From Longimicrobiales bacterium (GTDB lineage Bacteria; Gemmatimonadota; Gemmatimonadetes; Longimicrobiales; Gaopeijiaceae): 64,000 bases of DNA. Every line of letters begins with the position of its first letter. The first letter of the stretch is position 1. A model generated the notes under the pieces. It was not told the origin of the DNA and did no database searches. It worked only from the letters and a program-made list of their open reading frames with translations. Below are positions 8,268 through 53,016 of the stretch, piece by piece. Both the position numbers and the translations under genes were made by a program. The stretch spans positions 3,112,501 to 3,176,500 of the forward strand of contig OX638356.1 of assembly GCA_951813395.1 (NCBI GenBank). The letters run 5' to 3'.

Positions 8268-8358
8268 GATGGCACTCCGGGATCAAGGCGTCGGGACGGT
8301 CTGCACGGTGCAGAATCGCGTGCTACGCAGGGCTTCCGCAATGCGTTCGCGGGGTCGC

Positions 8359-10104
8359 CTATGCCGCCGGACGCTCGACGCGCAGGGTCAGGATGTCGGT
8401 ATCGTGATACTTCTGGTGCCGCACGGAGGTCGCGAGGTGGCGGAGCAGCCGCAATGAAAAGTCGTGCTCCGAGGGGATCTCCACCGAGTGCTCTCCCGCC
8501 AGCGCCATACGGTCCTCGATGTTCCCTTCTCCCGCCACGGCAAGGAACTCCAGCTCGGCCGCCCCGGGCACCGAGCGCACGCTGAGGCGCAGCCGCCTCC
8601 CTTCGCGCACATCATCGCCCTCCTCCCCCATGAGACTCAGCAGTCCCTCTTCGGCGGCAAGCGAGACCCGGCCCGACATGGCCTCGTCCCATCCCGCGCG
8701 CGACGCGAAGCTGCCCAGGAACGCCTGGATTTCCGGGACGGCGTTGACGCCGAGGTCGGTCACCAGCCGCTTCCGACGCGGCCCGGAGAGCTCGACGAAC
8801 GCCGACAGCAGGAGTGCGGTCAGGCCGCCGGAGGTCATGCCGTTGCCCAGCATTTCGGAGAAGAAGGGGCTCATCTGGCCGGTGAAGAGTCCGCCGGCCT
8901 GGAAGCCCGAACCCACCCAGAACGACACGCCCACGATCGCGGCCTTGCGGTAGTTCATCCCGTCGCCGACCACGATGCGCATGCCCAGCACGAAGAGGAT
9001 GGCGATCAGCACGACCACGTAGGCGCCGATGACCGCGTTCGGGATCGAGAGGATGACGGCCACGAACCTGGGCAGGAAGGCCAGCGCGATGAATCCGACT
9101 CCGATGCAGACGCCCACCCGCCGGGCGGCGACCCCGGTGATTTCGACGATCGACACGCTGCTCGAATACGTGGTGTTGGGCACGGTGGCGAGCAGCCCTG
9201 AAAGGAAGTTGCCCAGTCCGTCGGCCATGACCGCGCCCTGCACCCCGCGGAAGTCCGTTGCGCGGGCGTCGCGCCACGAAACGCGCTGCACGGCGACCGC
9301 GTCCCCGACGGTCTCGATCGCCCCGACCAGGGTGACGAAAACGAAGGCGGGGAGCAGCGCCCAGAAGGTCGGGCCGAAGGAGAAGTCGAACCCGGGCCAG
9401 CCGCTCACCGGCAGTCCGATCCACGGGGCCGCGGCCACCTGTTCCCAGGAGAACAGATCGAATTGGCCGGCGACAATGCAGCCGGACACGATTCCGATCA
9501 CGGGACCCCAGAGCCGCATCGCGCCGCTCGCGCGGAGGATGATGATCATCGTGATGGCGAGCGTGGCGATCGCCGTGGCCGGGCCGGCGGCGGGCGCCGC
9601 ACCCGGCGGCACCTGCTCGACGAGATCCAGGACGAGCGGCATGACCGTGACCGCGATCAGCATGATCACCGTGCCGGCGACGGTGGGCGTGATGAGGCGC
9701 CGGAGAAGGGCGAGCCGCGACGCGAGCAGGAACTGGAAGAGCGCCGAGGCGGCGACCAGTGTCGCCAGCATCCCGGGCCCTCCCCGTGCCAGCGCGGTGA
9801 CCGCCACCGCGATGAACGCGCCCGACGTGCCCATCAGGAGGATGTAGCCCGACCCGAACCGCCAGACCCGCCTGGCCTGCACCATGGTGGTGATGCCGCT
9901 GACGAGGAGCGCCGCGCAGGCCGCCCACGACAGGAAGAGCTCGCTCTCGCCGGCGGTGCGAACCACGATAGCGATCGTCAGGACGATCGGTCCGAGTGTG
10001 AGCACGCAGTACTGCAGCGCCAGTCCGACCGCGACGGGAAACGGGGGTCTCTCCTCGGGCTCGAAGCGGACGTCGGCGCCTGCCTGGGTCGAGGGATGGG
10101 CCAT
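8359..10104 (-). CDS. NCS2-type (SLC23) nucleobase transporter with a C-terminal ATPase-like domain
   Basis: A 581-residue fusion. Residues about 25-440 form a polytopic xanthine/uracil-permease-type symporter with around 12-14 membrane segments; the signature region is ETVGDAVAVQRVSWRDAR...GVQGAVMADGLGNFLSGLLATVPNT, split here at its usual motif. Residues about 445-581 are soluble and resemble an RsbW-like histidine-kinase-type ATPase fold (SLAAEEGLLSLMGEE, then beta-strands and a closing helix), not the usual short tail. I start at ATG 10104 (MAHPSTQAG) because upstream in-frame sequence has no family character. The substrate class (purine or pyrimidine base) follows from family only. Confidence 0.82.
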   Translation of the reverse strand: MAHPSTQAGADVRFEPEERPPFPVAVGLALQYCVLTLGPIVLTIAIVVRTAGESELFLSWAACAALLVSGITTMVQARRVWRFGSGYILLMGTSGAFIAVAVTALARGGPGMLATLVAASALFQFLLASRLALLRRLITPTVAGTVIMLIAVTVMPLVLDLVEQVPPGAAPAAGPATAIATLAITMIIILRASGAMRLWGPVIGIVSGCIVAGQFDLFSWEQVAAAPWIGLPVSGWPGFDFSFGPTFWALLPAFVFVTLVGAIETVGDAVAVQRVSWRDARATDFRGVQGAVMADGLGNFLSGLLATVPNTTYSSSVSIVEITGVAARRVGVCIGVGFIALAFLPRFVAVILSIPNAVIGAYVVVLIAILFVLGMRIVVGDGMNYRKAAIVGVSFWVGSGFQAGGLFTGQMSPFFSEMLGNGMTSGGLTALLLSAFVELSGPRRKRLVTDLGVNAVPEIQAFLGSFASRAGWDEAMSGRVSLAAEEGLLSLMGEEGDDVREGRRLRLSVRSVPGAAELEFLAVAGEGNIEDRMALAGEHSVEIPSEHDFSLRLLRHLATSVRHQKYHDTDILTLRVERPAA

Positions 10105-10285
10105 GGGGGATCCAGGGCTTGGGGGGATTGTCGGTCCGAAGGAGCACAGTATCGGGGACGCAGGACGCCCGCGCAATGAAGCAGAGGCACCTTGCGGCCC
10201 CGGCGCACGCCACCGAACCTTGGGGCTGATTGCGGCCGTGGGAAGGGCCCGGCCACACGCGCAACGGACCCCTGGAGGGATTGCC

Positions 10286-10906
10286 ATGAGATCGAAGCAA
10301 GACATGCTGCGGCGGCCGCTGTTCGCCGCGATGGTGGCCATGACGGTGGCGTGCGCCGCGCCGGAGCACGGTGCCGAGGGCGAGGGTGCGGAAGCCGAAC
10401 CGATGTCGGCGATGGAGGTCGAACTGCCGCCCACGCCGATGGCCGACCCGGCCGATGTTGCGTCGGTGGAGGCGATCGTGACCGCGGTCTACGAATCCAT
10501 CTCGGGCGATGCCGGGGTTGCGCGGGACTGGGACCGCTTCCGGTCCCTCTTCCTGCCGGGGGCGCGCCTGATGCCCGTGGCCACCGAACATCTGGAGAAC
10601 GGGCGCCGGAGTTCGATCAACTCGGTCTCCCCCGAGCAGTTCGCAGAGGGGACCGACGAGTTCTTCGAGCAGGAGGGGTTCTACGAGGTCGAGATCGGCA
10701 ACGTCACCGAGACCTACGGCGACATCGCGCACCGCTTCAGCAGCTACGCGTCGTTGCGCACCGACGACCCGAACGAGGAGCCCTTCAACCGCGGCATCAA
10801 CTCGTTCCAGCTCCTGCACGACGGCGAGCGCTGGTGGATCCTCACCATCTTCTGGCAGCACGAGCCGGACGCGGGCCCGATCCCGGAAAAGTATCTGGAC
10901 GGCTAG
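10286..10906 (+). CDS. secreted SnoaL/NTF2-like protein, probable lipoprotein
   Basis: A 206-residue protein of unknown role. It has a signal segment (MLRRPLFAAMVAMTVAC) ending at a cysteine that could be a weak lipobox, an Ala/Glu-rich linker, then an alpha+beta domain with VEAIVTAVYESISG, DWDRFRSLFLPGARLMPV and a final GINSFQLLHDGERWWILTIFWQ, which is the pattern of the SnoaL/DUF4440 NTF2-like fold. GGAGGG sits 7 bases before the chosen ATG. It ends 4 bases into the convergent DUF1684 gene. Confidence 0.75.
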   Translation: MRSKQDMLRRPLFAAMVAMTVACAAPEHGAEGEGAEAEPMSAMEVELPPTPMADPADVASVEAIVTAVYESISGDAGVARDWDRFRSLFLPGARLMPVATEHLENGRRSSINSVSPEQFAEGTDEFFEQEGFYEVEIGNVTETYGDIAHRFSSYASLRTDDPNEEPFNRGINSFQLLHDGERWWILTIFWQHEPDAGPIPEKYLDG

Positions 10907-11850
10907 TACGCCGGCTCGGCCGGACGCTTTTCGCCCGCCGTGACGGCGACCTGCAGCCGGTTCTGGCGGGGCGGCAGGCTGCACACCGAGAACGGGGTGA
11001 AGACGCAGGGCGGGTTGTAGGCGCGGTTGAAGTCGATGACCGTCCAGCCGTCGTCGTTCGCGAGGGGGACGCGCATGTAGCGGCCGCCCTGGTAGGTGTC
11101 GCGAACGGCGGTCGAGTCCCACAGCGAGATGAAGTAGGTGCGGCTGGTGGCGCGCGCGAAGGCGACGAGGCGGTGCTCGGTGCCCCCCACCTCGAAGACC
11201 AGCTCGCCGGGCGACTCGTTCTCGACGGTGCCGCCGCGCACGTCGGCGAGGGGAACGATGCGGGGCTCGGGGTAGGGGTCGAACCGGGCCGGGAGCCGCC
11301 AATCGGTGGTCACCGGGAAGTAGTCCGGGAGCTGGAAGGCGGCGAGGCGGGGTGCGTCCCGGTCCCACACGCGCAGCCAAAGGCGGTCCGTCCCGCGCTC
11401 GGAATGGATGCGAAGGCCGAGGGATCCCAGGGCGAGGATGGTGGTATTCTCTTCGCGGTCGTTCCGCAGCGCGAGTTCTTCCGCGACCGCCGACCCGACG
11501 TCGATGGTCAGGCCGCTCTCCTCCTCCGGCACCAGACGAACCTGGCCGTTCGCAAGGTGGAGGGTTCCGGCGAAGGGGGGCGCGTCTTCCGGCGGCAGGA
11601 CGATCGCAAGCGAGGTGTCGGATCCGAACCGGTTCTCGCCCTCCGCGAGCTCCCAGAGGCCCGCCCAGCTGATGACTCCGGCCGCCGGGTTCGCGAGGCT
11701 GGACCGCCGGTTCGCGCGCCACTCCTCGTGCTCCGCCGCGAGGACTTCCGGGGACACCGCGCCGAGGTCGGGTGCCGGATCGCCCGCGCAGGCGGCCAGG
11801 AGCGCGCACACGATTGCGGGAAGAATTCGCGCGGGAGGGAAAGGGAACAT
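10903..11850 (-). CDS. DUF1684 domain lipoprotein
   Basis: A 315-residue protein with a lipobox (CALLAAC, Cys about residue 21). The body matches DUF1684: EEWRANRR near the start, SWAGLWELAEGENRFGSD, then the diagnostic C-terminal block TYQGGRYMRVP...DFNRAYNPPCVFTPFSVCSLPP split here, and a closing AGEK. Function of the family is unknown; the family is common in secretome-rich soil and marine bacteria. Its 3' end overlaps the convergent NTF2-like gene by 4 bases. Confidence 0.88.
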   Translation of the reverse strand: MFPFPPARILPAIVCALLAACAGDPAPDLGAVSPEVLAAEHEEWRANRRSSLANPAAGVISWAGLWELAEGENRFGSDTSLAIVLPPEDAPPFAGTLHLANGQVRLVPEEESGLTIDVGSAVAEELALRNDREENTTILALGSLGLRIHSERGTDRLWLRVWDRDAPRLAAFQLPDYFPVTTDWRLPARFDPYPEPRIVPLADVRGGTVENESPGELVFEVGGTEHRLVAFARATSRTYFISLWDSTAVRDTYQGGRYMRVPLANDDGWTVIDFNRAYNPPCVFTPFSVCSLPPRQNRLQVAVTAGEKRPAEPAY

Positions 11851-11893
11851 ACCCCATGATAGGCTCCCGGCCCGGCGACGCCAACGGGTCGGA

Positions 11894-13882
11894 TCAGCGC
11901 GCTGCCTCCGCGTCCGCCTCCACCGCTTCCCACTCGCGCATCAGGCGGGCGATCCGCTCGGTCAGCTCCCTGCGTTCGGATTCCAGCCCCTGCACCTCCT
12001 CCGGCGCCGCGCGCTCGTAGAAGATCGGAGACGCGAAGACGGCGTCGATCTCGGACACGCGCGCCTCGGCCCCGTCGATTCTCTCGGCCAGCTCCGCGCC
12101 CCTGACCTCCAGCTCACGCAACCGGCGGTCGCGGCGCGCGCGCTTGCGCCGGTTCCTGCCCCACGTATCCTGGCTGGCCCCGCGGGGCGCTTCGTCCCCT
12201 TCGGCGCGGGAACGCCGGTTCCCGGCCCTCGTATTCAGCAGCACGGCGTCGGTGTCGAGGTGATCGTCGCCGCTGTGCTGCACGTATTCTTCATAGGTAC
12301 CTCTGTAGTCGCGCATGCCGTCTTCGGTGATCTCCACGATCCGGTTGGCCAGCCGCGCGACGAACCACCGGTCGTGGGAGACGAACACCAGCGTGCCCGC
12401 GAAGTGCTTCAGCCCGTTGACCAGCGCCTCGATCGACTCCAGGTCCAGGTGGTTGGTGGGCTCGTCGAGCACCAGGACGTTGGGCGCGCGGATCATCAGG
12501 CTGCACAGCACCAGCCGTGCCGACTCTCCGCCCGAGAGCGCGCCGAGACGCTTGTCGGCGTCGTCTCCGGTGAACAGCACCATCCCCATCTTCCCGCGCG
12601 CAAAGCCCGTTCCCTTTCCCGCGCAATAGCTGCCGATCCACGCCTCTGCTGTCTGCCGCTCCGGTGCCCCGCCCCCGTCCGCGGCGCCCACCGCCAGGTG
12701 GTCCTTCGGATCCTGCGCAAAGTACCCGGGCCAGGTCTCGTATCCCCAGGCGACCGAACCCTCGTCCGCCTCCAGTCTGCCGACCATGATCTTGAGCAGC
12801 GTGGACTTGCCGATCCCGTTGGGCCCCACGATCGCAAGCCGGTCCCCCCGGGCCACCCGCAGGTTCACGTCCCGCAGCACCTCGTTGTCCCCGAACGCCT
12901 TGCCGACCCGCTCGACCTTCAGAACCTCGCGGCCGCTGGGGCGCCGCTGCTCGAATCGGAAGGTCGGATACCGCCGCGAGCTCTTCGGCAGCTCCACCAG
13001 CTCCTCGGCCTTCTTCTCGATCATGCGAACGCGGCTCTGGGCCTGCCGCGCCTTGGACGCCTTGGCGCGGAAGCGGTCGACGAACTTCCTGTGGTGCGCG
13101 ATCTCCCGCTCCCGAACGGCGATCTCCTTCTCGCGGCGCTCCCGCTCGGCCGCCTTGGCCCGGAGGAAGCGCGTGTAGTTGCCCGGATACCCGATCACCG
13201 TCTCGTAGTCGATGTCGAGGATCTGCGTGGCCACGTTGTCGAGGAAGCGGTGGTCGTGGCTGATCACGACAACGGGACCGCGGAAGCCCCGGAGGAACTT
13301 CTCCAGCCAGCGGATCGAGACGATGTCGAGGTGATTGGTGGGCTCGTCGAGGAGGAGCGCGTCGGGCGCGCTCGCCAGGACCTGGGCCAGCAGCACGCGC
13401 AGGCGGAAGCCCCCCGACAGGGTGGAAAGCGGGTCGCGGTGGACCCCGGGGGGCAGCCCGAGTCCCTCGAGGATGGCGGCCGCACGCGATTCGGCCGTGT
13501 ATCCGTCGTGCCGCTCGAAGACCTCCTCCAGCCGCGAGAAGCGTTCGCCGTCGAAGTGCTCGTCGGCGCGCGCGAGCACTTCGTCCCGTTCGGCCATTGC
13601 GCGCCACAACTCCTCGTTGCCCATGAGGGTGACTTCGAGGATCCGTTCGTCCTCGTACAGGAAGCGGTCCTGCCGCAACACCCCGAGACGGAGCCTCCGG
13701 GGCATGTCGACCGACCCCTCGCTCGCCTCGATGTCCCCGGCCAGGATGTTCAGCAGGGTGGTCTTGCCCGAACCGTTGGCGCCGACCATTCCGTAGCGCT
13801 CGCCGGGGCTGAGGCGGAACGAGGCGCCCTCGAAGAGGACGCGTTCGCCGAAGGACTTGGAGAGGCTGGTGGCGGAGATCAT
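11894..13882 (-). CDS. ABC-F family ATPase (ribosome-associated, Uup/EttA-like)
   Basis: A 662-residue soluble protein with two ABC ATPase domains and no membrane part. Walker A motifs are GANGSGKTTLLN (about residue 35) and GPNGIGKSTLLK (about residue 350); the signatures are LSGGF and LSGGESARLVL, with LLLDEPTNHLD and LVLDEPTNHLD as Walker B. A charged helical linker rich in Arg/Lys/Glu separates the domains, as in ABC-F proteins that act at the ribosomal E site. The C-terminal 100 residues form a charged coiled coil. Role: translation-factor-like relief of stalled ribosomes, or antibiotic protection; the exact subfamily is not resolved. Confidence 0.92.
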   Translation of the reverse strand: MISATSLSKSFGERVLFEGASFRLSPGERYGMVGANGSGKTTLLNILAGDIEASEGSVDMPRRLRLGVLRQDRFLYEDERILEVTLMGNEELWRAMAERDEVLARADEHFDGERFSRLEEVFERHDGYTAESRAAAILEGLGLPPGVHRDPLSTLSGGFRLRVLLAQVLASAPDALLLDEPTNHLDIVSIRWLEKFLRGFRGPVVVISHDHRFLDNVATQILDIDYETVIGYPGNYTRFLRAKAAERERREKEIAVREREIAHHRKFVDRFRAKASKARQAQSRVRMIEKKAEELVELPKSSRRYPTFRFEQRRPSGREVLKVERVGKAFGDNEVLRDVNLRVARGDRLAIVGPNGIGKSTLLKIMVGRLEADEGSVAWGYETWPGYFAQDPKDHLAVGAADGGGAPERQTAEAWIGSYCAGKGTGFARGKMGMVLFTGDDADKRLGALSGGESARLVLCSLMIRAPNVLVLDEPTNHLDLESIEALVNGLKHFAGTLVFVSHDRWFVARLANRIVEITEDGMRDYRGTYEEYVQHSGDDHLDTDAVLLNTRAGNRRSRAEGDEAPRGASQDTWGRNRRKRARRDRRLRELEVRGAELAERIDGAEARVSEIDAVFASPIFYERAAPEEVQGLESERRELTERIARLMREWEAVEADAEAAR

Positions 13883-44608: not shown

Positions 44609-45394
44609 ATGCATGTCACCTACTTCATTCCCGGCCCGCTCTCGCGTGGTCCTCTCGGATTCGGGGAACTCGAACGCCGCCGGGCGTATCTGGAACGCCA
44701 CGCGGCTCCCGGCACGACCGTGGCGGTCGAGGACAGCGAGGAGGGACCCGTGTCGATTGAAAGCTCGGCGGAAGAGGCCCTCTGCGTGCCATCGCTGCTT
44801 GCGTCGGCTCCGCGGCTCGAATCCCGAGGGACGAATGCCATCATCGTCGGCTGTTTCGGTGATCCCGGACTTTGTGCCGTTCGTGAGGTCACCAGTATCC
44901 CCGTGGTGGGCCCCGGACAGGCAAGCGGACATCTGGCGGCCCAGGTCGGCGATCGTTTCGCGGTACTGACGGTCGTGGACGAGGTGGTTCCCTCTGTGCA
45001 CCGGCAATTCCGCGGCCACGGGCTGGAGCGATTCGTGTCAGAGGTGCGGGCCGTGGACGTGCCGGTCCTGGAGCTGCGCAGCCGGCGCAACGAGGTCCTG
45101 GACACGCTCGAAGGCGAGGGGCATGCGGCTGTTGCGAACGGCGCCGACTCCATCGTGCTCGGATGCATGACGATGGGTTTTCTGGACGTGGCACGGGAAC
45201 TGCAAGCGCGCCTGGGCGTACCGGTCGTCAATCCGGTTGTCGCCGCGCTCAAGGCGGCGGAAGGAATGGTCGCGGCCGGCCTGGCACCGTCGGTGCGTGC
45301 CTATCCGCCTCCGCGCAAGCAACTGGAGGGGGCGGGCGCCGGATCAGCCTCCGGGCGGATGAGCGACGAGCGGGACGGCCACCCGCTGGAGTAG
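44609..45394 (+). CDS. Asp/Glu/hydantoin racemase family protein
   Basis: A 261-residue protein of the cofactor-independent racemase family. Both catalytic cysteines are visible, in IIVGCFGDPG (about residue 74) and IVLGCMTMGF (about residue 180), and FIPGPLS and PVVNPVVAALKAAE are in place as in hydantoin racemases. The last 25 residues are atypical and overlap the convergent M28 peptidase gene by 51 bases. A GAGGAGA site precedes the ATG. Likely substrate is an amino-acid derivative, but not identifiable. Confidence 0.82.
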   Translation: MHVTYFIPGPLSRGPLGFGELERRRAYLERHAAPGTTVAVEDSEEGPVSIESSAEEALCVPSLLASAPRLESRGTNAIIVGCFGDPGLCAVREVTSIPVVGPGQASGHLAAQVGDRFAVLTVVDEVVPSVHRQFRGHGLERFVSEVRAVDVPVLELRSRRNEVLDTLEGEGHAAVANGADSIVLGCMTMGFLDVARELQARLGVPVVNPVVAALKAAEGMVAAGLAPSVRAYPPPRKQLEGAGAGSASGRMSDERDGHPLE

Positions 45395-47119
45395 CCACGA
45401 CGCCTCTGCGAAGCCGGCAACCACCTGGTTGACCCGGCGTTGCAGATCCGTCACCACGAATGGAAACAGCTCCGACTCCGTTTCTCGCATTTCGGCAAGC
45501 TCGGGCACCCTGGCAAGCTTGGGCATGGGTACGCGGGGCGTTGCCGGATCGTGCTCGAACCGGGGCCCCTCGGCGTATCCGATGGGCACCAGGATCCGCG
45601 CCAGTCTAAGCAGCACCTCGTTTGCCACATCGGGATCGAAATTGCCCTCTTCGATGTCGTCGTAGAAGGTGGTCAGCCGCTCCAGCAGTGCGTCGTAGGA
45701 CTCTCTAACCGGCACCAGGTTGAACACCTTGGCGAGATCCTTGTCGATCGTGGCTTCATACGCCTCGAGAGCATCTCCCAGTTCGGCCATCGTCGCCCGG
45801 AAATCCAACGGCAGTACCTCGTCATCCAGGAACCTGCCGATGGCCGTCAGGTAGACCCGGAGGTCGCGTTCCAGGTTGGCGCGGTCCGCGACCTCGATCC
45901 GGTCCTTCTCCGTATGCCATGCGATGTTGCCCCCACAGCCGCCTACCGGGTAGAACCCGAGCCGGTCCCGTTCCTCCTCGGGGATGTTGGAGAGCAGCAT
46001 GAAGAAGGAGGTAAGACCGATCTGGTCGAACGAATAGTCTCCCGCCCGGAGGGGCCGCTGGCGGGTCGGCTCGACACCCGCGACGGACACGATGGAGGAC
46101 CGGCAAACCTCTTCCGCCTCGGCCATCCACGGTACGGCGTCGTACTCGGTCGCGCCCCAGCACCCCGGCGAGTCGATGTTGACGGCGGCCACGCATCGCC
46201 GGGACAGATCGAGAGCGAACTTGTCGGCGAACCAGGTCGATCCGCCGTAGCGGCCCGTGGAATGCGCCGGCCACCAGGCTACCCTCAGCGACCGCCTCAG
46301 ATCCTCCCTGTGTTCGTGGAAGATCTGCGCCAGTTCGAGCAGCGTGGCGTCGCCGACTGCATTGTCGCCGATCCCGACGTCCCACGAGTCGTAGTGCCCG
46401 TGCGCGAGGACGAAATCCTCCTCCTGGCCATCGATCTTTGCGACCGGAAGCTGGCAGGGATACCACCCTTCCTCGAGATCGGTGTGGATCGTCACCTTGT
46501 CCAGGCCATCCGCGATGGCTTCCACCAACTTGTTGCCGTCCCACCGATCAATGGCAGCCACAGGGGTGGTTGGACGTTGACCTAGCTGCGACGCCCCCGG
46601 CGCGCCCCAAACGGTGGTGCAGATTCCCCAGTGGACGCGGCTGCCCGGGTTGATATACACCTGGCCGACCGCACCCGCGGCCTCGAAGCGCGCCACGGAC
46701 ACGGGCATCGGCATTCCCTCGGTCACCACGATCTTGCCGGCAATGTCGTCGGGTAGAGAGCCATGCGCCGACTTGAACAGATCGGCTGCGTCGGTGGACG
46801 GGTTCGCGGGGACGTGGACGGGCGCCGCCGTCAGCCCCCTCTTCGGGGTTGAAGCCGCGAACGAAGGTGGCTTGCCGGCGACATCCCCGCCCGCGAATGC
46901 GACCGAAGCCCCCTTCGGTATGGAAAGGTAGAGGTCCGGCTCATAGACGTCGTGAGGGATTTCCGCGTGCTCAAGGCGCGACACAATGAAGTGCGCGGCC
47001 GCACGTTCGTCCGTCGATCCGGATTCGCGTACGAGCACTGCGAACCGCTCGATCAGGCTCCATCCCTCCGAGCCCTCTGCGAACGACACTTTTGACAGGA
47101 GAGACTCGACCAGACTCAT
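45344..47119 (-). CDS. M28-like peptidase with PA domain, no signal peptide
   Basis: A 591-residue protein. The N-terminal third has a protease-associated insert (IAGKIVVTEGMPMPVSVARFEAAGAVGQVYINPG region). The metallopeptidase core follows with HGHYDSWDVGIGDNAVGDAT (zinc His/Asp), AWWPAHSTGRYGGSTWF, VNIDSPGC and WHTEKDRIEVAD (last zinc His). The catalytic Glu-Glu pair normally seen as EE is replaced by AHSTG, so hydrolytic chemistry differs or is lost. No signal peptide, so a cytosolic role is likely. ATG 47119 has GAGG upstream; ATG 47134 is an alternative. It overlaps the racemase end, and both face the peptide cluster. Confidence 0.82.
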   Translation of the reverse strand: MSLVESLLSKVSFAEGSEGWSLIERFAVLVRESGSTDERAAAHFIVSRLEHAEIPHDVYEPDLYLSIPKGASVAFAGGDVAGKPPSFAASTPKRGLTAAPVHVPANPSTDAADLFKSAHGSLPDDIAGKIVVTEGMPMPVSVARFEAAGAVGQVYINPGSRVHWGICTTVWGAPGASQLGQRPTTPVAAIDRWDGNKLVEAIADGLDKVTIHTDLEEGWYPCQLPVAKIDGQEEDFVLAHGHYDSWDVGIGDNAVGDATLLELAQIFHEHREDLRRSLRVAWWPAHSTGRYGGSTWFADKFALDLSRRCVAAVNIDSPGCWGATEYDAVPWMAEAEEVCRSSIVSVAGVEPTRQRPLRAGDYSFDQIGLTSFFMLLSNIPEEERDRLGFYPVGGCGGNIAWHTEKDRIEVADRANLERDLRVYLTAIGRFLDDEVLPLDFRATMAELGDALEAYEATIDKDLAKVFNLVPVRESYDALLERLTTFYDDIEEGNFDPDVANEVLLRLARILVPIGYAEGPRFEHDPATPRVPMPKLARVPELAEMRETESELFPFVVTDLQRRVNQVVAGFAEASWLLQRVAVPLVAHPPGG

Positions 47120-47242
47120 GGTACCTCGGGGCATGACTTCCACGGGCTGAGGGCGCCGTGTTCCGGGATTACAATAACCCTCCCCACAACCCCGGACCCG
47201 TGAGGACCCGTCCGTGTTGGCGTGGCGGTGCCCGAGCAAGTC

Positions 47243-47269
47243 TCCCCGCACGACCGGAATCTGCGGGGA
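47243..47269 (-). terminator. hairpin ending the peptide cluster
   Basis: An 8-bp perfect stem (TCCCCGCA/TGCGGGGA, 11-base loop) lies 22 bases beyond the permease stop in the direction of transcription. A U-run is lacking. Position after the last gene of a nine-gene series supports a terminator. Confidence 0.5.
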
Positions 47270-47290
47270 TCGAAGCAGACAAGAGCAGCC

Positions 47291-47995
47291 CTACCAGTCC
47301 ATCGCGTCCGGCTCCGGTTCGTAGATTTCGAGCCCCTTGCGGGCGAGCAGGAAAGAGCCGGCCAGGACGAGGGCCGAAGCCACCAATGCCGTGGCCGTGG
47401 CAATCAGCAGCGTGTGGTCGCTGGCCATGATGGCCTGAATGGCCCGCAGCGGACTTCCGAAAAGCCGTTCGTAGAGGTAGCCCACTGTAAGGAACGCTGC
47501 AAGAACGGTTAGAAACCCATAGGTCATGACCGTCTTGGCCTTGAATCGGAGTGCAAGCCCCAGCGCGGAACTACAGCACGCGGATATGGTGATCCAAAAC
47601 ACGGGGAAGGAAACGGCGATGGTGCGGACAGTACTTGCGTCCGCGCCAATGCCGGGCCACGCCACACCAGCAGCAACGGCAAACGACAGAGCGCTGAGCG
47701 CCGAAAAGAGCGTGCCCGCCGTCAGCCGAGCCGCGGCGAGAGTCGATGCGCTCAAGGGCAGGGTGGTGAGCAATTCCAGGCCACCGGTCATCTTGTCCTT
47801 GGCCACCTCGAGGGGAACCTGCAGTGCGAGCGAAATACCCAGAATAGATAGCACGGCGCTCCATCCCGCCCGACCGAATCCCAGCACGAGCACCGCCACC
47901 GTGGCCACCGAGAACATGATTCCAACACCCATCAGGAACTGCCGCGAGCGTTGAAACTCAACACCCACCACTGCTCGAAATGCCTGCTTGGTCAT
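47291..47995 (-). CDS. ABC transporter permease of the peptide cluster
   Basis: A 234-residue membrane protein with about six segments, of ABC-2 type. The N-terminus MTKQAFRAVVGVEFQRSRQ is amphipathic and positive as in such permeases; the segments LQVPLEVAKDKMTGGLELLTTLPLSASTL form the usual coupling region. The ATG overlaps the ATPase stop by 4 bases. With the ATPase it would make a half-size ABC exporter or immunity pump for the peptides. It has no peptidase or fused ATPase domain. Confidence 0.8.
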   Translation of the reverse strand: MTKQAFRAVVGVEFQRSRQFLMGVGIMFSVATVAVLVLGFGRAGWSAVLSILGISLALQVPLEVAKDKMTGGLELLTTLPLSASTLAAARLTAGTLFSALSALSFAVAAGVAWPGIGADASTVRTIAVSFPVFWITISACCSSALGLALRFKAKTVMTYGFLTVLAAFLTVGYLYERLFGSPLRAIQAIMASDHTLLIATATALVASALVLAGSFLLARKGLEIYEPEPDAMDW

Positions 47996-48705
47996 GAACG
48001 CTCCAATGCTTGGAGGAGGATCTGGGAAAGCGGTGCACCCGGGTCGCGTTCCCGCAGCTCCGCAGTAGCGACATCTTCGAGGATTCGTCCCACCCTCATG
48101 AGGACGACCCGCTCGGCGATGAACTCCACGTCTTCCAGGATGTGGCTTGAGAAGATGACGAGCCGGTCGCCGCCACCAGGCGCACACTCGTCGATGATCC
48201 CGAGCAGCTCACGGCGCATGACCGGATCGATGGCCGACGTGGGCTCGTCCAGAATGAGGACAGGTGGCCGATGAGCCTCGGCTCCAACCAGAGACAGCTT
48301 TACCGCCATTCCCTTGGATAGTGTTCCGACCTTCGAGGCACTGGGAAGCTCCAGCCGCTCAAGGAGTTCCTCCGCGTACTCATGATCCCAGGTGGGATAG
48401 AACGCCGAAAGGAAACTCAGGTGTTCACCTACGGTCATCCACCCGAACCCGAGCAGCTTCTCGGGAAGAAACCCGATCTGCGCCCTGATCTCCGGCAACC
48501 GGGACCGGACGTCCTCTCCGCCGAGCTCCACCCCGCCCTCATAGTCCCGCAGCCGACCCGCGATCGCCTTGAGCGTCGTGCTCTTGCCGGCGCCGTTTGC
48601 TCCCACCACCGCCACGCGCTCTCCGGGATCGATCGACAGGTCCATCGGCTCCAGGAAAAAGTTCGAGTAGCGGACGCTGAATCCCCGCAACCTCACACCG
48701 ATCAT
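47992..48705 (-). CDS. ABC transporter ATPase of the peptide cluster
   Basis: A 237-residue ATPase. Walker A GANGAGKSTTLKAIAGRL, Q-loop region IGFLPEKLLGFGWMTVGEHL, signature LSKGMAVKLSLVGA, Walker B PVLILDEPTSAIDP and the H-loop HILEDVEF are all intact. The signature LSKGM is the type found in CcmA/BcrA-like antibiotic and bacteriocin self-protection ATPases. I start at ATG 48705 (MIGVRLRGFSVRYSN); an upstream ATG at 48762 would add 19 unlike residues and overlap the previous gene. Confidence 0.88.
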   Translation of the reverse strand: MIGVRLRGFSVRYSNFFLEPMDLSIDPGERVAVVGANGAGKSTTLKAIAGRLRDYEGGVELGGEDVRSRLPEIRAQIGFLPEKLLGFGWMTVGEHLSFLSAFYPTWDHEYAEELLERLELPSASKVGTLSKGMAVKLSLVGAEAHRPPVLILDEPTSAIDPVMRRELLGIIDECAPGGGDRLVIFSSHILEDVEFIAERVVLMRVGRILEDVATAELRERDPGAPLSQILLQALERS

Positions 48706-48746
48706 CTTGCAAGTCCCCACGCCGCCCCGCCCTCTCTCCGGCACCT

Positions 48747-49427
48747 CTATAATGTGACCCATGCACGCACCGCTGAAAAGGCCACCGTCACGCCCCAGAA
48801 GAAGAGCGCAAGACCGAGCGCCGGCCGGACCTCCAGGCCATCACACCGGCGCAAAGCCATCACAAGAAACGCGAACCAACAGACATGGCCGATGGAGAAG
48901 ACCTGCGCGATTGCCAGCAGGAAAGGACTGGTGGCCGGTACAAAAGCCGCCAGCCCCAGCGACACCTGCAGGTCTGCGGGCGAGTCGACGCTGCCGCCAG
49001 TGGTCAGATGCAGATAGAGAGCGAGCAGCACTCCCTGCGCAGCCAGAATCGCCTCTCCGTACAGCAGCACGGAGAGGACCGGGCGGATTCGGCGCTCCGA
49101 ATTCGTCAGTACGAGCACTGCCCAGCCCAGGATCGTCAACAGGCCTGCCTTGAACAGCTGGACCACCGGGGCGATCAGTGCGAGCGACCACACCATCAAC
49201 ATCATTCCCCGGGTTATTTCAGCCCCCTGATCTCCCATCAGACTCTGTAGCAGCGGTCGCAGGGAGAATGCTGCCGCGAGAGAGAACACCCATCCGACGA
49301 CCAGTGGCGGCACAATCGGCCGATGCACCCGAATGTCGTCCAGACTCGGAATGAGCATGTTCCCGAAGTGTCGCAACCTGGCCAGCACGCGTGGCGTCCA
49401 TCCCTCCACCTTGCCACCTCCTTTCAT
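48747..49427 (-). CDS. Yip1-like multi-spanning membrane protein
   Basis: A 226-residue protein with five to six hydrophobic segments and a soluble N-terminus (PRVLARLRHFGNMLIPSLDDIR). The layout resembles YIP1-domain proteins, often encoded next to ABC-2 exporters. Its ATG overlaps the stop of the thioredoxin-like gene by 4 bases. In this cluster it may be an immunity or transporter accessory protein; there is no direct evidence for either. Confidence 0.6.
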   Translation of the reverse strand: MKGGGKVEGWTPRVLARLRHFGNMLIPSLDDIRVHRPIVPPLVVGWVFSLAAAFSLRPLLQSLMGDQGAEITRGMMLMVWSLALIAPVVQLFKAGLLTILGWAVLVLTNSERRIRPVLSVLLYGEAILAAQGVLLALYLHLTTGGSVDSPADLQVSLGLAAFVPATSPFLLAIAQVFSIGHVCWFAFLVMALRRCDGLEVRPALGLALFFWGVTVAFSAVRAWVTL

Positions 49428-49996
49428 GACCCTCCCCCGTTTCCTCCGCGCACCACCGCGATGTAGTCCACCAGCCTGCGCCTGCCGGTTCGCCCGGCAT
49501 GCACGAGCCGCACGGTGTCCGAGCCGTCAACCCAGAACGTCGCCGGCACGGCGTTCAGTCCGAGAGCACGGGCGACGCTGCCGTCCTGGTCGTGCACCGT
49601 CCGCATACGAAGCGATGGAGGCACCCACGCGGCGCCATCCATTGCCGACTTCGGCGATGCGACCACCCACACCTGCAAGTCCCCAACTGTCGCGTTCGTC
49701 CCGTCACCGCTCCCGAGCAGAGACTCCCACAGCTCGAGTTCGGCCTTGCAATGAACACAGCTCCGGTCCACGTACACGAGGGCCGCCGAACTCCGGAAAC
49801 CGGACGCCCGCGCTTGCCCTCCACCCCACACCCGTTCGGTCACAATCCCCGGAAGCGCCCATGGCGGCTCCTCGGGCCCAGGACCAACCGGCGCCCTCCT
49901 GCCAGCCAGGACATACGGTGCCAGTCCGATTCCTACCACCATGACCGCAACGGCCGCAGCCACAACCTTCTTCACCATACCTCGTTCTACTCCCAT
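49424..49996 (-). CDS. membrane-anchored thioredoxin-like protein with CVHC
   Basis: A 190-residue protein with an N-terminal membrane anchor (VVAAAVAVMVVGIGLAPYVL) and an extracytoplasmic thioredoxin-like domain. The CxxC is Cys80-Val-His-Cys83 in VYVDRSCVHCKAELELW, and a cis-proline is seen in NAVPATFWVDG. CVHC is a redox motif of disulfide exchange proteins. Next to precursors with CxxC/CxxxC pairs, disulfide formation or isomerisation in the mature peptides is its likely task. The ATG has an excellent site, GGAGGAGG, and lies 80 bases after the last precursor gene. Confidence 0.8.
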   Translation of the reverse strand: MGVERGMVKKVVAAAVAVMVVGIGLAPYVLAGRRAPVGPGPEEPPWALPGIVTERVWGGGQARASGFRSSAALVYVDRSCVHCKAELELWESLLGSGDGTNATVGDLQVWVVASPKSAMDGAAWVPPSLRMRTVHDQDGSVARALGLNAVPATFWVDGSDTVRLVHAGRTGRRRLVDYIAVVRGGNGGGS

Positions 49997-50016
49997 CACG
50001 TTCCTCCTCCCGAACC

Positions 50017-50050
50017 GGAGCCCGGATGGACCACGATCCATCCGGGCTCC
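50017..50050 (-). promoter_or_regulatory. long perfect inverted repeat between precursor genes and thioredoxin-like gene
   Basis: A 14-bp perfect stem (GGAGCCCGGATGGA against TCCATCCGGGCTCC) with a 6-base loop lies between the fourth precursor and the thioredoxin-like gene. There is no U-run after it. It would protect the 3' end of the peptide-coding mRNA and lower read-through into the five downstream genes, giving more precursor than transporter, as is common in bacteriocin operons. The effect is inferred. Confidence 0.65.
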
Positions 50051-50076
50051 CCTCCCTACGAAGCCGAATTGTCCGT

Positions 50077-50370
50077 TCAGCCGAACGCCACGTGGCAGAT
50101 GTAGGCGCATGGCACAAGCGTGCCGAGCGGCGCGTTGCCAAATGCGATCATCAGTATGCAGCCCGCGCATGCCCCAGTCACAGCTGCCCAGAAGATCATG
50201 AGCGACTGTCCTCCGACTACATCCGGTGTCGCAGAAGCCTCCACCGTAGTTGGGGCCAGGACTCCGCCCACGTCACCGCGCAACCCTGTTTCACTTGCAG
50301 AGATTATCGTTGTACTAAGGGTCAGCGCACCTGCCAACATCACAACTGTCCTTCTCGCTACAGATCTCAT
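50077..50370 (-). CDS. small CxxC/CxxxC peptide precursor (fourth)
   Basis: A 97-residue precursor. An N-terminal signal-like segment (RRTVVMLAGALTLSTTII) is followed by a polar spacer and DVVGG at residues 50-54. The predicted mature part is 43 residues, hydrophobic, with CAGC (Cys68-Cys71) and CAYIC (Cys88-Cys92), 16 residues apart. It shares with its three upstream neighbours the order signal, spacer, VVG(G/A), GC-x2-C, C-x3-C. No known family recognised. A GGGAGG site lies 6 bases before ATG. Confidence 0.75.
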   Translation of the reverse strand: MRSVARRTVVMLAGALTLSTTIISASETGLRGDVGGVLAPTTVEASATPDVVGGQSLMIFWAAVTGACAGCILMIAFGNAPLGTLVPCAYICHVAFG

Positions 50371-50409
50371 CCTTGCCTCCCTCTTCGACGTTCTTCACTT
50401 GGCTCCACT

Positions 50410-50736
50410 TCAAAACACATCCACGCACGCTACAGTACACCCCAAGCCGACAGCGAAGCCCATCGGTGGTATCAGGGCAAGGAGGAAGACACTGATGCCG
50501 AAGCAGGTCCAACAGCCAGAATCAAGCTCCAACTGACCCCCAACCACGGCATTCACGTTCATGGCAACCTCCCGGTCGTGGCCATTCACAACACCATCGC
50601 TTTCTAGCGCCCGCACAACGTCAAGAGACGCCAGTTCGATCTGGCCGGTACCGTTCACCGGAACCGATGCCAGAGTCGTTTGCATGAGCGACAGGACAAG
50701 CATGCCACTCGTTATCATTCTTGTTGTCGATTTCAT
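50410..50736 (-). CDS. small CxxC/CxxxC peptide precursor (third)
   Basis: A 108-residue precursor. N-terminal signal-like segment (MITSGMLVLSLMQTTLA), a long acidic spacer, AVVGG at residues 63-67, then a 41-residue hydrophobic core with CWTC (Cys75-Cys78) and CTVAC (Cys100-Cys104), 21 residues apart, and a Pro-Pro break at the middle. I start at 50736 because of AGGAGAAAAAG just upstream; a longer reading to 50832 overlaps the previous gene. Codon use and base content are more AT-rich than in most of the window. Confidence 0.75.
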   Translation of the reverse strand: MKSTTRMITSGMLVLSLMQTTLASVPVNGTGQIELASLDVVRALESDGVVNGHDREVAMNVNAVVGGQLELDSGCWTCFGISVFLLALIPPMGFAVGLGCTVACVDVF

Positions 50737-50791
50737 CTTTTTCTCCTGTTGATTCCTGTTTGTTCGTTCACCGGCGATGATCCCTGTCCGC

Positions 50792-51112
50792 TCATGCGTA
50801 CCCGATATAGCAGAGACCGGCACATGCGGCATACACCGGCCAAAGCCATCCGAAACTCACAATGAGTCCAACCACTGATCCGGCACCCAATCCCAGCGCG
50901 GTGCCAACACAAACGTTGCAACCTCCCTTTACGATGATCGTGCCAATGCCGCCCTGCATTCCTACTACATTGTCCTCCTGTTGTGCTTCCATGGCGCCGT
51001 CCGCCCGCAATGTTGGCACGCGCCCTGGATTTGAAACAGTGGGATACGCTAACGCGGCGATGACTGCGAATAGAGTCACATGCCTCAACACTTTCTTGCC
51101 CCTCACAAGCAT
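50792..51112 (-). CDS. small CxxC/CxxxC peptide precursor (second)
   Basis: A 106-residue precursor. N-terminal signal-like segment (VTLFAVIAALAYPTVS), a spacer, NVVGMQGG at residues 48-55, then about 51 residues with CNVC (Cys65-Cys68) and CAGLC (Cys97-Cys101), 28 residues apart. Between the cysteine pairs are two Gly-rich hydrophobic stretches that could form a helical hairpin. A GAGGAAAGGAGA site touches the ATG. Together with the first precursor it is the most Gly-rich of the four. Confidence 0.75.
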   Translation of the reverse strand: MLVRGKKVLRHVTLFAVIAALAYPTVSNPGRVPTLRADGAMEAQQEDNVVGMQGGIGTIIVKGGCNVCVGTALGLGAGSVVGLIVSFGWLWPVYAACAGLCYIGYA

Positions 51113-51133
51113 TCTCCTTTCCTCAAAAGGCTC

Positions 51134-51427
51134 CTACATGACCGAGTGATAGCAGAATCCAGCGCAAGCCCCCAATGCGAGGGTGGATCCGGCTTTGCCA
51201 GCTGCGGCTACGACGGCAACCCACCCACCGGTGTACGCCAGACCTACTCCGACGGCGATGCACCCGACGCAACCGAGGAAAGACTTCCAACCGGCGCCAA
51301 CAACCGCCGTCGTCTCCACGGGCTGCGGCGACCTGTCAGCGATTGTGCCGCCGACTGTCGCGGCCTGGGTGCCCAGCAGTGCCAGACACAGTGTCAGCAC
51401 GATGGGCCGAAAACTCCTCTTCTTCAT
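51134..51427 (-). CDS. small CxxC/CxxxC peptide precursor (first)
   Basis: A 97-residue precursor, the first after the C39 peptidase gene. N-terminal signal-like segment (PIVLTLCLALLGTQAAT), spacer, AVVGA at residues 41-45 (GA in place of GG), then 52 residues with CVGC (Cys53-Cys56) and CAGFC (Cys88-Cys92), 31 residues apart. The core GVGLAYTGGWVAVVAAAG is a Gly-rich helix candidate. The site GGAGGAGAAGG lies right before ATG. Order and motifs identify it as a paralogue of the next three genes. Confidence 0.75.
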   Translation of the reverse strand: MKKRSFRPIVLTLCLALLGTQAATVGGTIADRSPQPVETTAVVGAGWKSFLGCVGCIAVGVGLAYTGGWVAVVAAAGKAGSTLALGACAGFCYHSVM

Positions 51428-51492
51428 CCTTCTCCTCCTCTTCTGATGTGGTGACCTGGACCGCGTCGCTCCTCGCCGCGGCCGATCCGGTG

Positions 51493-52092
51493 CTACCCGG
51501 CGAGCAGGATCGACTCGCCGGACCAGATCTTCTCGAATCCTTCCTCGCTGATCGAATAGCGGCCCACCGAAGGGTCCACGACGGTGAGACGTCCGGATGG
51601 CGACCTTCCGGTGACCGTCACGAAGTGGTTGCGGTTCACCCAGGCGATGAACGGGAGACGCGTGTGCGGCAGTTCGGCCGACGTGAGCCGTGTTAGCATG
51701 AGCGACAGGTTGAATCGGCTCGCGGCACGGATCAGCCCACCCGCAGTCGTCCCTCGCGGCTCAGTCCCCGCCAGCACCATGAGCGAGTCGGTCGATGGCG
51801 CAGCAACGCCGACAATGCGCATCATGTTGGCCAGCGCGGCAGGGCCGCAGTCATTCAGCGCGGCCTGGAAGACTACGCCGTCACTTCCCAGGAACTCCGC
51901 ATCCGACCGGGCCAGTTCGGCACGGGCGACAAGTCGCCCCAGACGGGGCAGATCGCTGGCCGCCAGGGTCCCGAGCGCGAGCGCGCCTGACACAAGGACG
52001 AGCACAAGGACGGCGGAGCGGCGAAGGTTGCGCGCGCGCTTCCCCGATCCATGTTCTCGCGGGCCGGAGACTTCGGACTGGTACCTTGGCAT
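51493..52092 (-). CDS. membrane-anchored C39 family peptidase
   Basis: A 199-residue protein with a basic N-terminus, one membrane helix (AVLVLVLVSGALALGTLAA, residues 27-45) and a C39 cysteine peptidase domain outside the membrane. The catalytic residues are Gln76, Cys82 (NDCGPAALANM), His156 (NRNHFVTV) and Asp173 (VVDPSVG). C39 domains remove double-glycine leaders of bacteriocins; they are usually fused to an ABC transporter on the cytosolic side, but here the domain stands alone and probably faces the periplasm. GCGAGG precedes ATG 52092. It heads the nine-gene cluster. Confidence 0.88.
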   Translation of the reverse strand: MPRYQSEVSGPREHGSGKRARNLRRSAVLVLVLVSGALALGTLAASDLPRLGRLVARAELARSDAEFLGSDGVVFQAALNDCGPAALANMMRIVGVAAPSTDSLMVLAGTEPRGTTAGGLIRAASRFNLSLMLTRLTSAELPHTRLPFIAWVNRNHFVTVTGRSPSGRLTVVDPSVGRYSISEEGFEKIWSGESILLAG

Positions 52093-52281
52093 CGGGATGC
52101 CTCGCGGGTCGATGGGTCGTGATACGATCAAGCGAGACCCACGCTACCCGCCCCGGATGTGCGTTTACATGTCTGGATGGGACAATCGTCCCGAGAGCGT
52201 GCATCGCCCCCTTCAGGCACCACGATTCGAGCGCACGTCGACCCCCGAACGCCCCCAACCAGCGGAGCGACCCACCCCAAC

Positions 52282-52304
52282 CGCCCCGCTTTTCGCGCGG
52301 GGCG
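52282..52304 (-). terminator. hairpin after the UGA-containing AhpC/TSA gene
   Basis: An 8-bp stem CGCCCCGC/GCGGGGCG with a 7-base loop lies 13 bases past the stop codon of the thioredoxin-fold gene in the direction of transcription. It separates that gene from the C39 cluster, suggesting the cluster has its own promoter within 52093-52280. Confidence 0.6.
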
Positions 52305-52316
52305 TCGTTCAGCCCG

Positions 52317-52943
52317 CTACAGCGACTTCAGGACCTCCAGGATGTCCTCGTTGGTGGGCCGCACCCGGTAGTCCACCTCCACGAAGCGGTACCGCACGAC
52401 GCCTTCCTTGTCGATCACGTAGGTGGCGGGGTGCGGCAGAGGCCGGTTGGGAGGCGCGTTCTCGTTGAACAGGCCGTAGCGGTCGATTACGGCGTGGTCC
52501 GGGTCGGAGAGCATGATGAAATCGGGGGCCATGCCGTCCTCCGCGGCGACACGGTCGATCATCAACTGCATCCCCTCCCGGTCGTCCACCGACACCGTCA
52601 CGATTTCCGTCTCGTCATTGAGATCGTCGGGCAAAAGGGCTCTCAGCTCCACGAGCTGACCGGCGCAGTAGGGTCACCAGTGGCCCCGGTAGAAGACGAG
52701 CACCACGTTCTTGTCCCCGCGGAAGCCCGAAAGCGCCACCGTGCCGCGGTCGAAGGACTCCAGGGCGAACAGCGGCGCTTCGCCCCCGACCGCCACGCGC
52801 TCGATGTCGGTGCCCGGCAGGTCGTGACCGTCGGCCGGACCCAGCTCCTGTGCGCGAGTCGAGTTTGCGGTCGCTGCCAGGGCGAGCAGCACCGGCAACG
52901 CGATGGATCGCCTGCCGGCCGGGAATCGAATGATCGGGAACAT
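52317..52943 (-). CDS. selenocysteine-containing AhpC/TSA thioredoxin-fold protein (UPYC)
   Basis: A 208-residue exported thioredoxin-fold protein if TGA at 52674-52676 is read as selenocysteine. The signal segment is SIALPVLLALAATANSTRAQ. The fold follows with APLFALESFDRGTVALSGFRGDKNVVLVFYRGHW, then residue 90 is the TGA, then PYCAGQLVELRALLP: the family active site WCPYC has its first cysteine replaced by UGA, giving U-P-Y-C. Translation of the same frame beyond TGA is fully homologous (VTVSVDDREGMQLMIDR, HPATYVIDKEGVVRYRFV). A SECIS-like hairpin follows. The rival view is a nonsense mutation; start at 52943 or 53003. Confidence 0.78.
52643..52659 (-). promoter_or_regulatory. SECIS-like hairpin of the UPYC gene
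   Basis: On the minus strand TCAGCTC-GTG-GAGCTGA forms a 7-bp perfect stem with a GUG loop. It begins 14 bases after the UGA, so the loop starts 22 bases downstream, with G first. Bacterial SECIS elements have an apical loop about 16-37 bases after UGA with a G in the first two loop positions, so this fits. Confidence 0.65.
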
Positions 52944-53016
52944 TTTCGTGGTCCATTGCGAGGCGGCGGATTCCAACCGGGTACACCCCCGGTTCCGGGA
53001 CACCTATGTTAATCGC

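What the first reader, a model, noticed from the sequence alone, without database searches (positions are those of the whole stretch)
50077..51427. Four precursors share VVG(G/A) and GC-x2-C ... C-x3-C although the rest has diverged
All four have a signal-like N-terminus, a polar spacer, DVVGG, AVVGG, NVVGMQGG or AVVGA, then [GA]CxxC and CxxxC separated by 31, 28, 21 and 16 residues in gene order. Predicted mature lengths are 52, 51, 41 and 43. The steady shortening of the loop while cysteine pairs stay fixed suggests a common disulfide frame with diversified cargo. The GC-x2-C opening loosely recalls halocin C8, but cysteine number and spacing differ.
Basis: partly seen in the sequence, partly recalled or inferred. 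Interest (0 to 1): 0.9.

Follow-up and report, generated by a model that had tools for sequence, protein, structure and literature searches.

The report
Two-peptide, disulfide bacteriocin-like gene cassette
Four small neighbouring genes in a Gemmatimonadota bacterium encode exported, cysteine-paired peptides that belong to a phylum-wide gene cassette always built around the same two partner peptides, most likely a two-part antibacterial weapon matured outside the cytoplasm by its own anchored protease and disulfide enzyme.

Summary
Four minus-strand precursors (51427-50077) share h-x-G-x and [GA]CxxC...CxxxC with loops of 31, 28, 21 and 16 residues; no other ORF in the window matches. They sit in a nine-gene cassette: membrane-anchored stand-alone C39 peptidase, precursors, thioredoxin-fold CxxC protein, Yip1-like membrane protein, ABC ATPase and ABC permease. 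I found 19 such cassettes in Gemmatimonadota. The 'steady shortening' is not a gradient. The first two precursors are conserved orthologous classes, A (window P4, loop 28-32) and B (P3, loop 28-29). In independent searches of 395 genomes both hit exactly the same 18 genomes. Ten cassettes contain only A and B. P2 and P1 are accessory peptides; in relatives such peptides can lose CxxC but keep VVGGQ. Canonical two-peptide double-glycine cassettes in the same family (C39-ABC exporter plus a related Yip1-like gene) share the h-x-G-x|G-[WF] junction. Best reading: a two-peptide, disulfide-braced bacteriocin whose leader was replaced by a Sec signal and whose exporter was replaced by a periplasmic C39. 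Halocin C8 membership was tested and not met. Activity, cleavage and disulfide pairing are untested.

The parts
51493..52092 (-). Membrane-anchored stand-alone peptidase C39 (199 aa from ATG 52092; longer TTG start at 52131)
   Evidence: Pfam C39 E 1.9e-23; catalytic Q76/C82/H156/D173 invariant in 13 homologues; aligns to the whole peptidase domain of a bacteriocin C39-ABC transporter, 4ry2/4s0f, E 1e-18
51134..51427 (-). Precursor P4 = class A core peptide; predicted cut VVGA|GWKSF, 52 aa mature
   Evidence: own-genome match to class A model E 2.7e-17, single copy
50792..51112 (-). Precursor P3 = class B core peptide; predicted cut after VVGM or VVGMQGG
   Evidence: own-genome match to class B model E 9.9e-15, single copy
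50410..50736 (-). Precursor P2 = accessory VVGG|Q-type peptide, 41 aa mature, 4 Cys
50077..50370 (-). Precursor P1 = accessory VVGG|Q-type peptide, 43 aa mature, 4 Cys
49424..49996 (-). Membrane-anchored thioredoxin-fold (TlpA/DsbE-like) protein, CVHC plus cis-Pro motif: putative disulfide enzyme for the peptides
   Evidence: CxxC (C80, C83) and P151 invariant in 10 homologues; weak AhpC-TSA/DsbE matches
48747..49409 (-). Multi-pass Yip1-like membrane protein; candidate immunity or release factor
   Evidence: conserved in cassettes; Pfam Yip1 in 3/12 members, best E 0.001; related to the protein next to canonical C39-ABC exporters
47992..48705 (-). ABC transporter ATPase
   Evidence: Pfam ABC_tran E 1.4e-27; best NCBIfam PmtA-like, below cutoff
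47291..47995 (-). ABC transporter permease, fastest-evolving of the machinery genes compared
47120..52316 (-). Whole cassette, inserted between the selenoprotein peroxiredoxin gene (52317-53003) and the M28-type peptidase gene (45344-47119)
   Evidence: congeners lacking the cassette have the two flanking genes next to each other, about 150-330 bp apart (L130, L131, L132, L133, L136, L141, L143)

Best explanation
The four ORFs are precursors of a two-peptide, disulfide-braced bacteriocin-like system plus two accessory peptides. Proposed route: (1) each precursor crosses the inner membrane by Sec with its N-terminal signal and polar spacer; (2) the anchored C39 peptidase, facing the periplasm, cuts after h-x-G-x (VVGA|GW in A, VVGG|Q in P1 and P2), a double-glycine-type site with a relaxed last residue; (3) the anchored thioredoxin-fold CxxC protein makes or corrects two disulfides that clamp the C-x2-C helix to the C-x3-C helix, giving a hydrophobic helical hairpin; (4) A and B act together on membranes of competing cells, with accessory peptides extending the spectrum; (5) the ABC pair and the Yip1-like protein protect the producer. 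Shown by sequence: the family, the obligate A+B pairing, the linked enzymes with intact catalytic residues, and the junction motif. Inferred: Sec export, cutting position, disulfide pairing, antibacterial action, immunity role.
For: Nineteen cassettes with A then B in every one, ten with only A and B. A and B models independently find the same 18 of 395 genomes, one copy each. C39 catalytic residues and the thioredoxin-fold CxxC are invariant. The P2 Gly is invariant and P4 hydrophobic in nearly all of 60 precursors, as in double-glycine sites. Canonical two-peptide cassettes in the same family (L148, L150, L152, L154, L119) have real GG leaders; several show the same junction (VHGG|GFW, VQGG|GFF, LEGE|GFW), with a C39-ABC exporter, a related Yip1-like protein and a separate ABC ATPase; since C39-ABC is already the exporter there, the second ABC is more likely immunity. 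Patchy distribution (7 of 23 congeners, 18 of 395 in the phylum) with empty sites. Precursors are coding (dN/dS below 1) but evolve faster than C39, ATPase and Yip1-like. Hydrophobic N-terminal segment in all four. Class B model all-helical, both Cys pairs inside helices, pLDDT 77.5.
Against: No activity data. Mature A and B peptides are near neutral (net -2 to +2), unlike most cationic bacteriocins; GxxxG is not enriched in A or B over shuffles. Core peptides show no significant homology to the canonical GG peptides. P1 residues R, T, Q and D are unusual for C39. No outer-membrane exit component is in the cassette. The class A fold is low confidence (pLDDT 67.7). Disulfide pairing was not determined.
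Confidence: 0.62

Rival explanations
1. The ABC pair (with the Yip1-like protein), not Sec, exports the precursors; the hydrophobic N-terminus is an ABC leader, and the anchored C39 acts during or after export.
For: The ABC pair is in every cassette not cut by a contig end; the permease evolves faster than the ATPase, as expected if it recognises the cargo.
Against: Canonical relatives carry a separate ABC ATPase in addition to a C39-ABC exporter, so that ABC is not needed for export there; precursors have a basic N-terminus, hydrophobic core and polar spacer like Sec precursors.
Confidence: 0.18
2. The peptides stay on the producer surface as a contact-dependent or structural layer (as Caulobacter CdzC/CdzD aggregate), rather than diffusing away.
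For: Two very hydrophobic, Gly/Ala-rich peptides (mean KD 1.3-1.4); no outer-membrane exit gene in the cassette; CdzC/D precedent (PMC5380434).
Against: CdzC/D use a type I exporter; a sequence relation was not tested; GxxxG is not enriched in A or B.
Confidence: 0.12
3. They are signalling peptides (pheromones) matured outside the cell.
For: Small exported peptides processed by C39 can be pheromones (ComC-type, established knowledge; ComA peptidase is among the matches).
Against: No sensor or receptor gene was identified in the conserved cassette; two obligate, roughly 50-residue hydrophobic partners with four cysteines each, plus variable extras; patchy presence.
Confidence: 0.06

Closest known systems
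Canonical two-peptide (class IIb-like) double-glycine bacteriocin cassettes, here those of the same Gemmatimonadota family (L148, L150, L152, L154, L119)
   Same: Two adjacent partner peptides; h-x-G-x|G-[WF] junction in several; C39 processing; a related Yip1-like protein; a separate ABC ATPase; L119 also has a thioredoxin-fold CxxC protein and a permease
   Different: Here the LTxxEM-type leader helix is replaced by a Sec-like signal and a spacer; C39 is a stand-alone anchored protein without ABC domains; core has CxxC...CxxxC; core homology not demonstrable
Microcin PDI (McpM) and class IIa microcins
   Same: Gram-negative producer, double-glycine-type cleavage, four cysteines in the mature peptide; McpM even has a second G-A cut downstream of the first leader (PMC5311971)
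   Different: Type I secretion, no Sec signal, single precursor, different cysteine spacing
Halocin C8
   Same: Small hydrophobic Cys-rich peptide with GCxxC opening, released from a larger exported precursor (own knowledge)
   Different: TIGR04449 does not match any precursor tested; ten cysteines instead of four (recalled sequence); no linked C39 known to me
Caulobacter CdzC/CdzD
   Same: Two-protein bacteriocin in a Gram-negative bacterium with a membrane immunity protein (PMC5380434)
   Different: Type I secretion, glycine-zipper proteins; sequence relation not tested
Lactococcin 972 type (Sec-exported bacteriocin with ABC-type immunity; own knowledge)
   Same: Signal-peptide export with linked ABC transporter
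   Different: No C39, no disulfide enzyme, no paired peptides (own knowledge); no Pfam match of the precursors

Membership tests
Two-peptide (class IIb) bacteriocin | Two different adjacent precursor genes that always occur together | tested here: met
   A then B in 19/19 cassettes; same 18/395 genomes by independent models
Two-peptide (class IIb) bacteriocin | Short double-glycine leader with LSxxEL-type helix, exported by a C39-ABC transporter | tested here: not met
   Hydrophobic signal plus spacer, stand-alone C39 without ABC domains; only the junction h-x-G-x is retained
[quoted passage not shown]
   GxxxG occurs but not above shuffled expectation: A 14 vs 20.6, B 23 vs 25.0
Two-peptide (class IIb) bacteriocin | Synergistic antibacterial activity and a dedicated immunity protein | not testable with these tools
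   needs peptides and assays
Peptidase C39 (double-glycine peptidase) | Q, C, H, D catalytic set and full domain | tested here: met
   Q76, C82, H156, D173 invariant; full-length alignment to the 4ry2/4s0f domain
Peptidase C39 (double-glycine peptidase) | Cuts the linked precursors at the h-x-G-x site | not testable with these tools
   motif conservation only
Thiol-disulfide oxidoreductase (TlpA/DsbE-like) | CxxC and cis-Pro motif | tested here: met
   C80, C83, P151 invariant; family scores below curated cutoffs for the window protein
Halocin C8 | Match to TIGR04449 halocin C8-like domain | tested here: not met
   Model detects halocin C8 at 1.1e-16 but none of the precursors tested, including window P4 and P3; no such match for any of the four
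Lactococcin 972 and other Pfam or NCBIfam bacteriocin families | Match to any curated bacteriocin model | tested here: not met
   No family above cutoff for the four precursors

The most novel reading that the evidence does not exclude
A new export and maturation logic for Gram-negative bacteriocins: obligate two-peptide, doubly disulfide-bonded peptides that leave by Sec and are processed in the periplasm by a dedicated anchored C39 with relaxed P1 specificity, derived from C39-ABC double-glycine systems still found in the same family, with a rapidly diversifying set of accessory peptides sharing the same processing site.
Probability: 0.45. Interest if true: 0.75.

Novelty: new variant of a known kind. 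Interest (0 to 1): 0.62.

Why it matters
If true, it shows how a leader peptidase that normally works on the cytoplasmic side of an exporter was moved to the outside and paired with Sec export, and it adds an unannotated family of paired, disulfide-braced peptides in a largely uncultured phylum. The set A+B, protease and redox enzyme is compact and directly testable, and A and B are missed by the Pfam and NCBIfam models tested here. A clear separation between conserved core peptides and variable accessory peptides using one processing site also gives a natural experiment in bacteriocin diversification.

Tried and rejected
Halocin C8 family: rejected by model test. Known bacteriocin or defence families: no hits in Pfam, NCBIfam or PADLOC for the precursors. 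PDB relatives of the cores by profile: none; fold search with the class B model: one insignificant match, E 8.9. Plasmid collection: C39 matches cover only part of the query, mostly ordinary C39-ABC transporters. More distant C39 genes (Neomarinimicrobiota, Luminiphilus/Halieaceae, Planctomycetes and others): no convincing CxxC...CxxxC precursors beside them. Homology of A/B cores to canonical GG peptides: tested against shuffles, not significant. Weak Yip1-like hits in other families (L107-L118): genes outside such cassettes. Promoter scan found nothing. 'Loop shortening' as a trend: rejected.

Full report
Observation. The window lies in a 4.09 Mb single-contig genome. Its named relatives carrying the same cassette are all Gemmatimonadota MAGs, some labelled Longimicrobiales. 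The four precursors are on the minus strand at the stated coordinates. Each start used here has a Shine-Dalgarno-like stretch upstream; P2 starts at 50736. The cysteine frame and loops of 31, 28, 21 and 16 are as stated. Only these four of 258 window ORFs match the pattern, against 0.02 expected.

Surroundings. In transcription order the minus strand carries: C39 peptidase with one N-terminal hydrophobic segment (52092-51493), P4, P3, P2, P1, a thioredoxin-fold protein with CVHC (49996-49424), a multi-pass membrane protein distantly Yip1-like (49409-48747), an ABC ATPase (48705-47992) and an ABC permease (47995-47291). The precursors match no curated family. The C39 domain is complete and its catalytic residues are invariant in 13 homologues.

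Relatives. A search of 146 genomes of the order with C39, of 395 genomes of the phylum with the Yip1-like protein, and one named-genome scan gave 19 cassettes including the window: L022-L033, L047 and L102-L106. C39 is present in 18 of these; in L105 the contig starts next to the first precursor. The thioredoxin-fold CxxC gene is present in all cassettes not cut by a contig end before it.

Two core classes. Sorting the precursors gives class A (window P4) and class B (window P3), one each in all 19 cassettes, A always before B; ten cassettes hold nothing else (L030-L033, L047, L102-L106). Loops: A 28-32, B 28-29. Profiles of A and B, searched separately over 395 genomes, both find the same 18 genomes, one copy each apart from two weak cross-matches, and always at the cassette. 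A and B models also cross-match each other, which suggests common ancestry. One class A member (L027) has no clear start codon and may be frameshifted.

Accessory peptides. P2 and P1 belong to a variable group (22 listed) with VVGGQ or similar; 17 have four cysteines and five (in L026 and L028) only two.

Processing site. Aligned on the invariant Gly (P2), P4 is Val, Leu or Ile in nearly all, P1 is G/A/R/T/Q/S and others, and P1' is Gly in A, mostly Gly in B, Gln or Gly in the accessory group. This is the double-glycine layout (hydrophobic P4, Gly P2) with a relaxed P1. In the same taxonomic family, canonical cassettes encode two short peptides with true leaders (such as MHTLNREEM). Junctions read VHGG|GFW (L152), VQGG|GFF (L148), LEGE|GFW (L150) and MDGR (L154). 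In L148, L150, L152 and L154 these are followed by a ~540 aa protein, an ABC ATPase, a C39-ABC exporter and a ~225 aa membrane protein; L119 has a C39-ABC exporter, a Yip1-like protein, a thioredoxin-fold protein and an ABC pair. The ~225 aa membrane proteins align as a group with the window's Yip1-like family (hhalign probability 92.7, E 4e-7; L119 member E about 1e-8 within a small set). The core peptides themselves do not score above shuffles, so their descent is not shown. The simplest history is that one lineage swapped the cytoplasmic leader for a Sec signal plus spacer and the exporter for an anchored C39.

Mechanism. Shown: gene family, linkage, intact catalytic residues, conserved junction. 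Inferred: Sec export (hydrophobic N-terminus; no signal-peptide predictor was available), N-in/C-out C39, periplasmic cut, disulfides made by the linked thioredoxin-fold protein. AlphaFold gives helices only: B helices 8-26, 32-41 and 43-57, with C17/C20 in the first and C49/C53 in the last (pLDDT 77.5); A is less certain (67.7). A helical hairpin clamped by two disulfides fits, but the pairing is open.

Selection and mobility. Among three close genomes the precursors have dN/dS below 1 (whole-gene values about 0.2-0.7) and identities of 0.37-0.84, while C39, Yip1-like and ATPase keep 0.87-0.95; the permease (0.65) is the fastest machinery gene compared. Seven of 23 congeners carry the cassette. 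Several congeners without it have the peroxiredoxin and M28 peptidase genes adjacent: a clean presence/absence site. In L027, L030, L031, L032 and L033 the cassette lies among other genes.

Against the bacteriocin reading: near-neutral peptides, no GxxxG enrichment, no activity data, no outer-membrane exit gene. I found no paper describing such a cassette in the library searched; this is weak evidence of novelty, since most subscription papers are not held.

Noticed in passing
window 52317-53003 (-): The flanking AhpC/TSA peroxiredoxin is split by an in-frame TGA in GHW-U-PYC. A stop sits at this same position (GHW*P[YFW]C) in all 23 loci of the genus where the stretch is covered, so it is very likely a selenoprotein (UxxC) rather than a frameshift.
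   Followed up: partly
L119 (G107), 6388-12381: Double-glycine two-peptide cassette with C39-ABC exporter, MauE, a TlpA-like CxxC protein, Yip1-like protein and an ABC pair in the same taxonomic family.
   Followed up: partly
L148, L150, L152, L154: Canonical two-peptide cassettes with an unidentified ~540 aa protein (no Pfam hit for the L152 copy) between the peptides and the ABC ATPase; their junctions show unusual P1 residues E and R.
   Followed up: partly
L027 7033-7606 (-): Two extra paralogous small precursors with a different cysteine arrangement (CMFC...CLKC) in the accessory position of a cassette.
   Followed up: no
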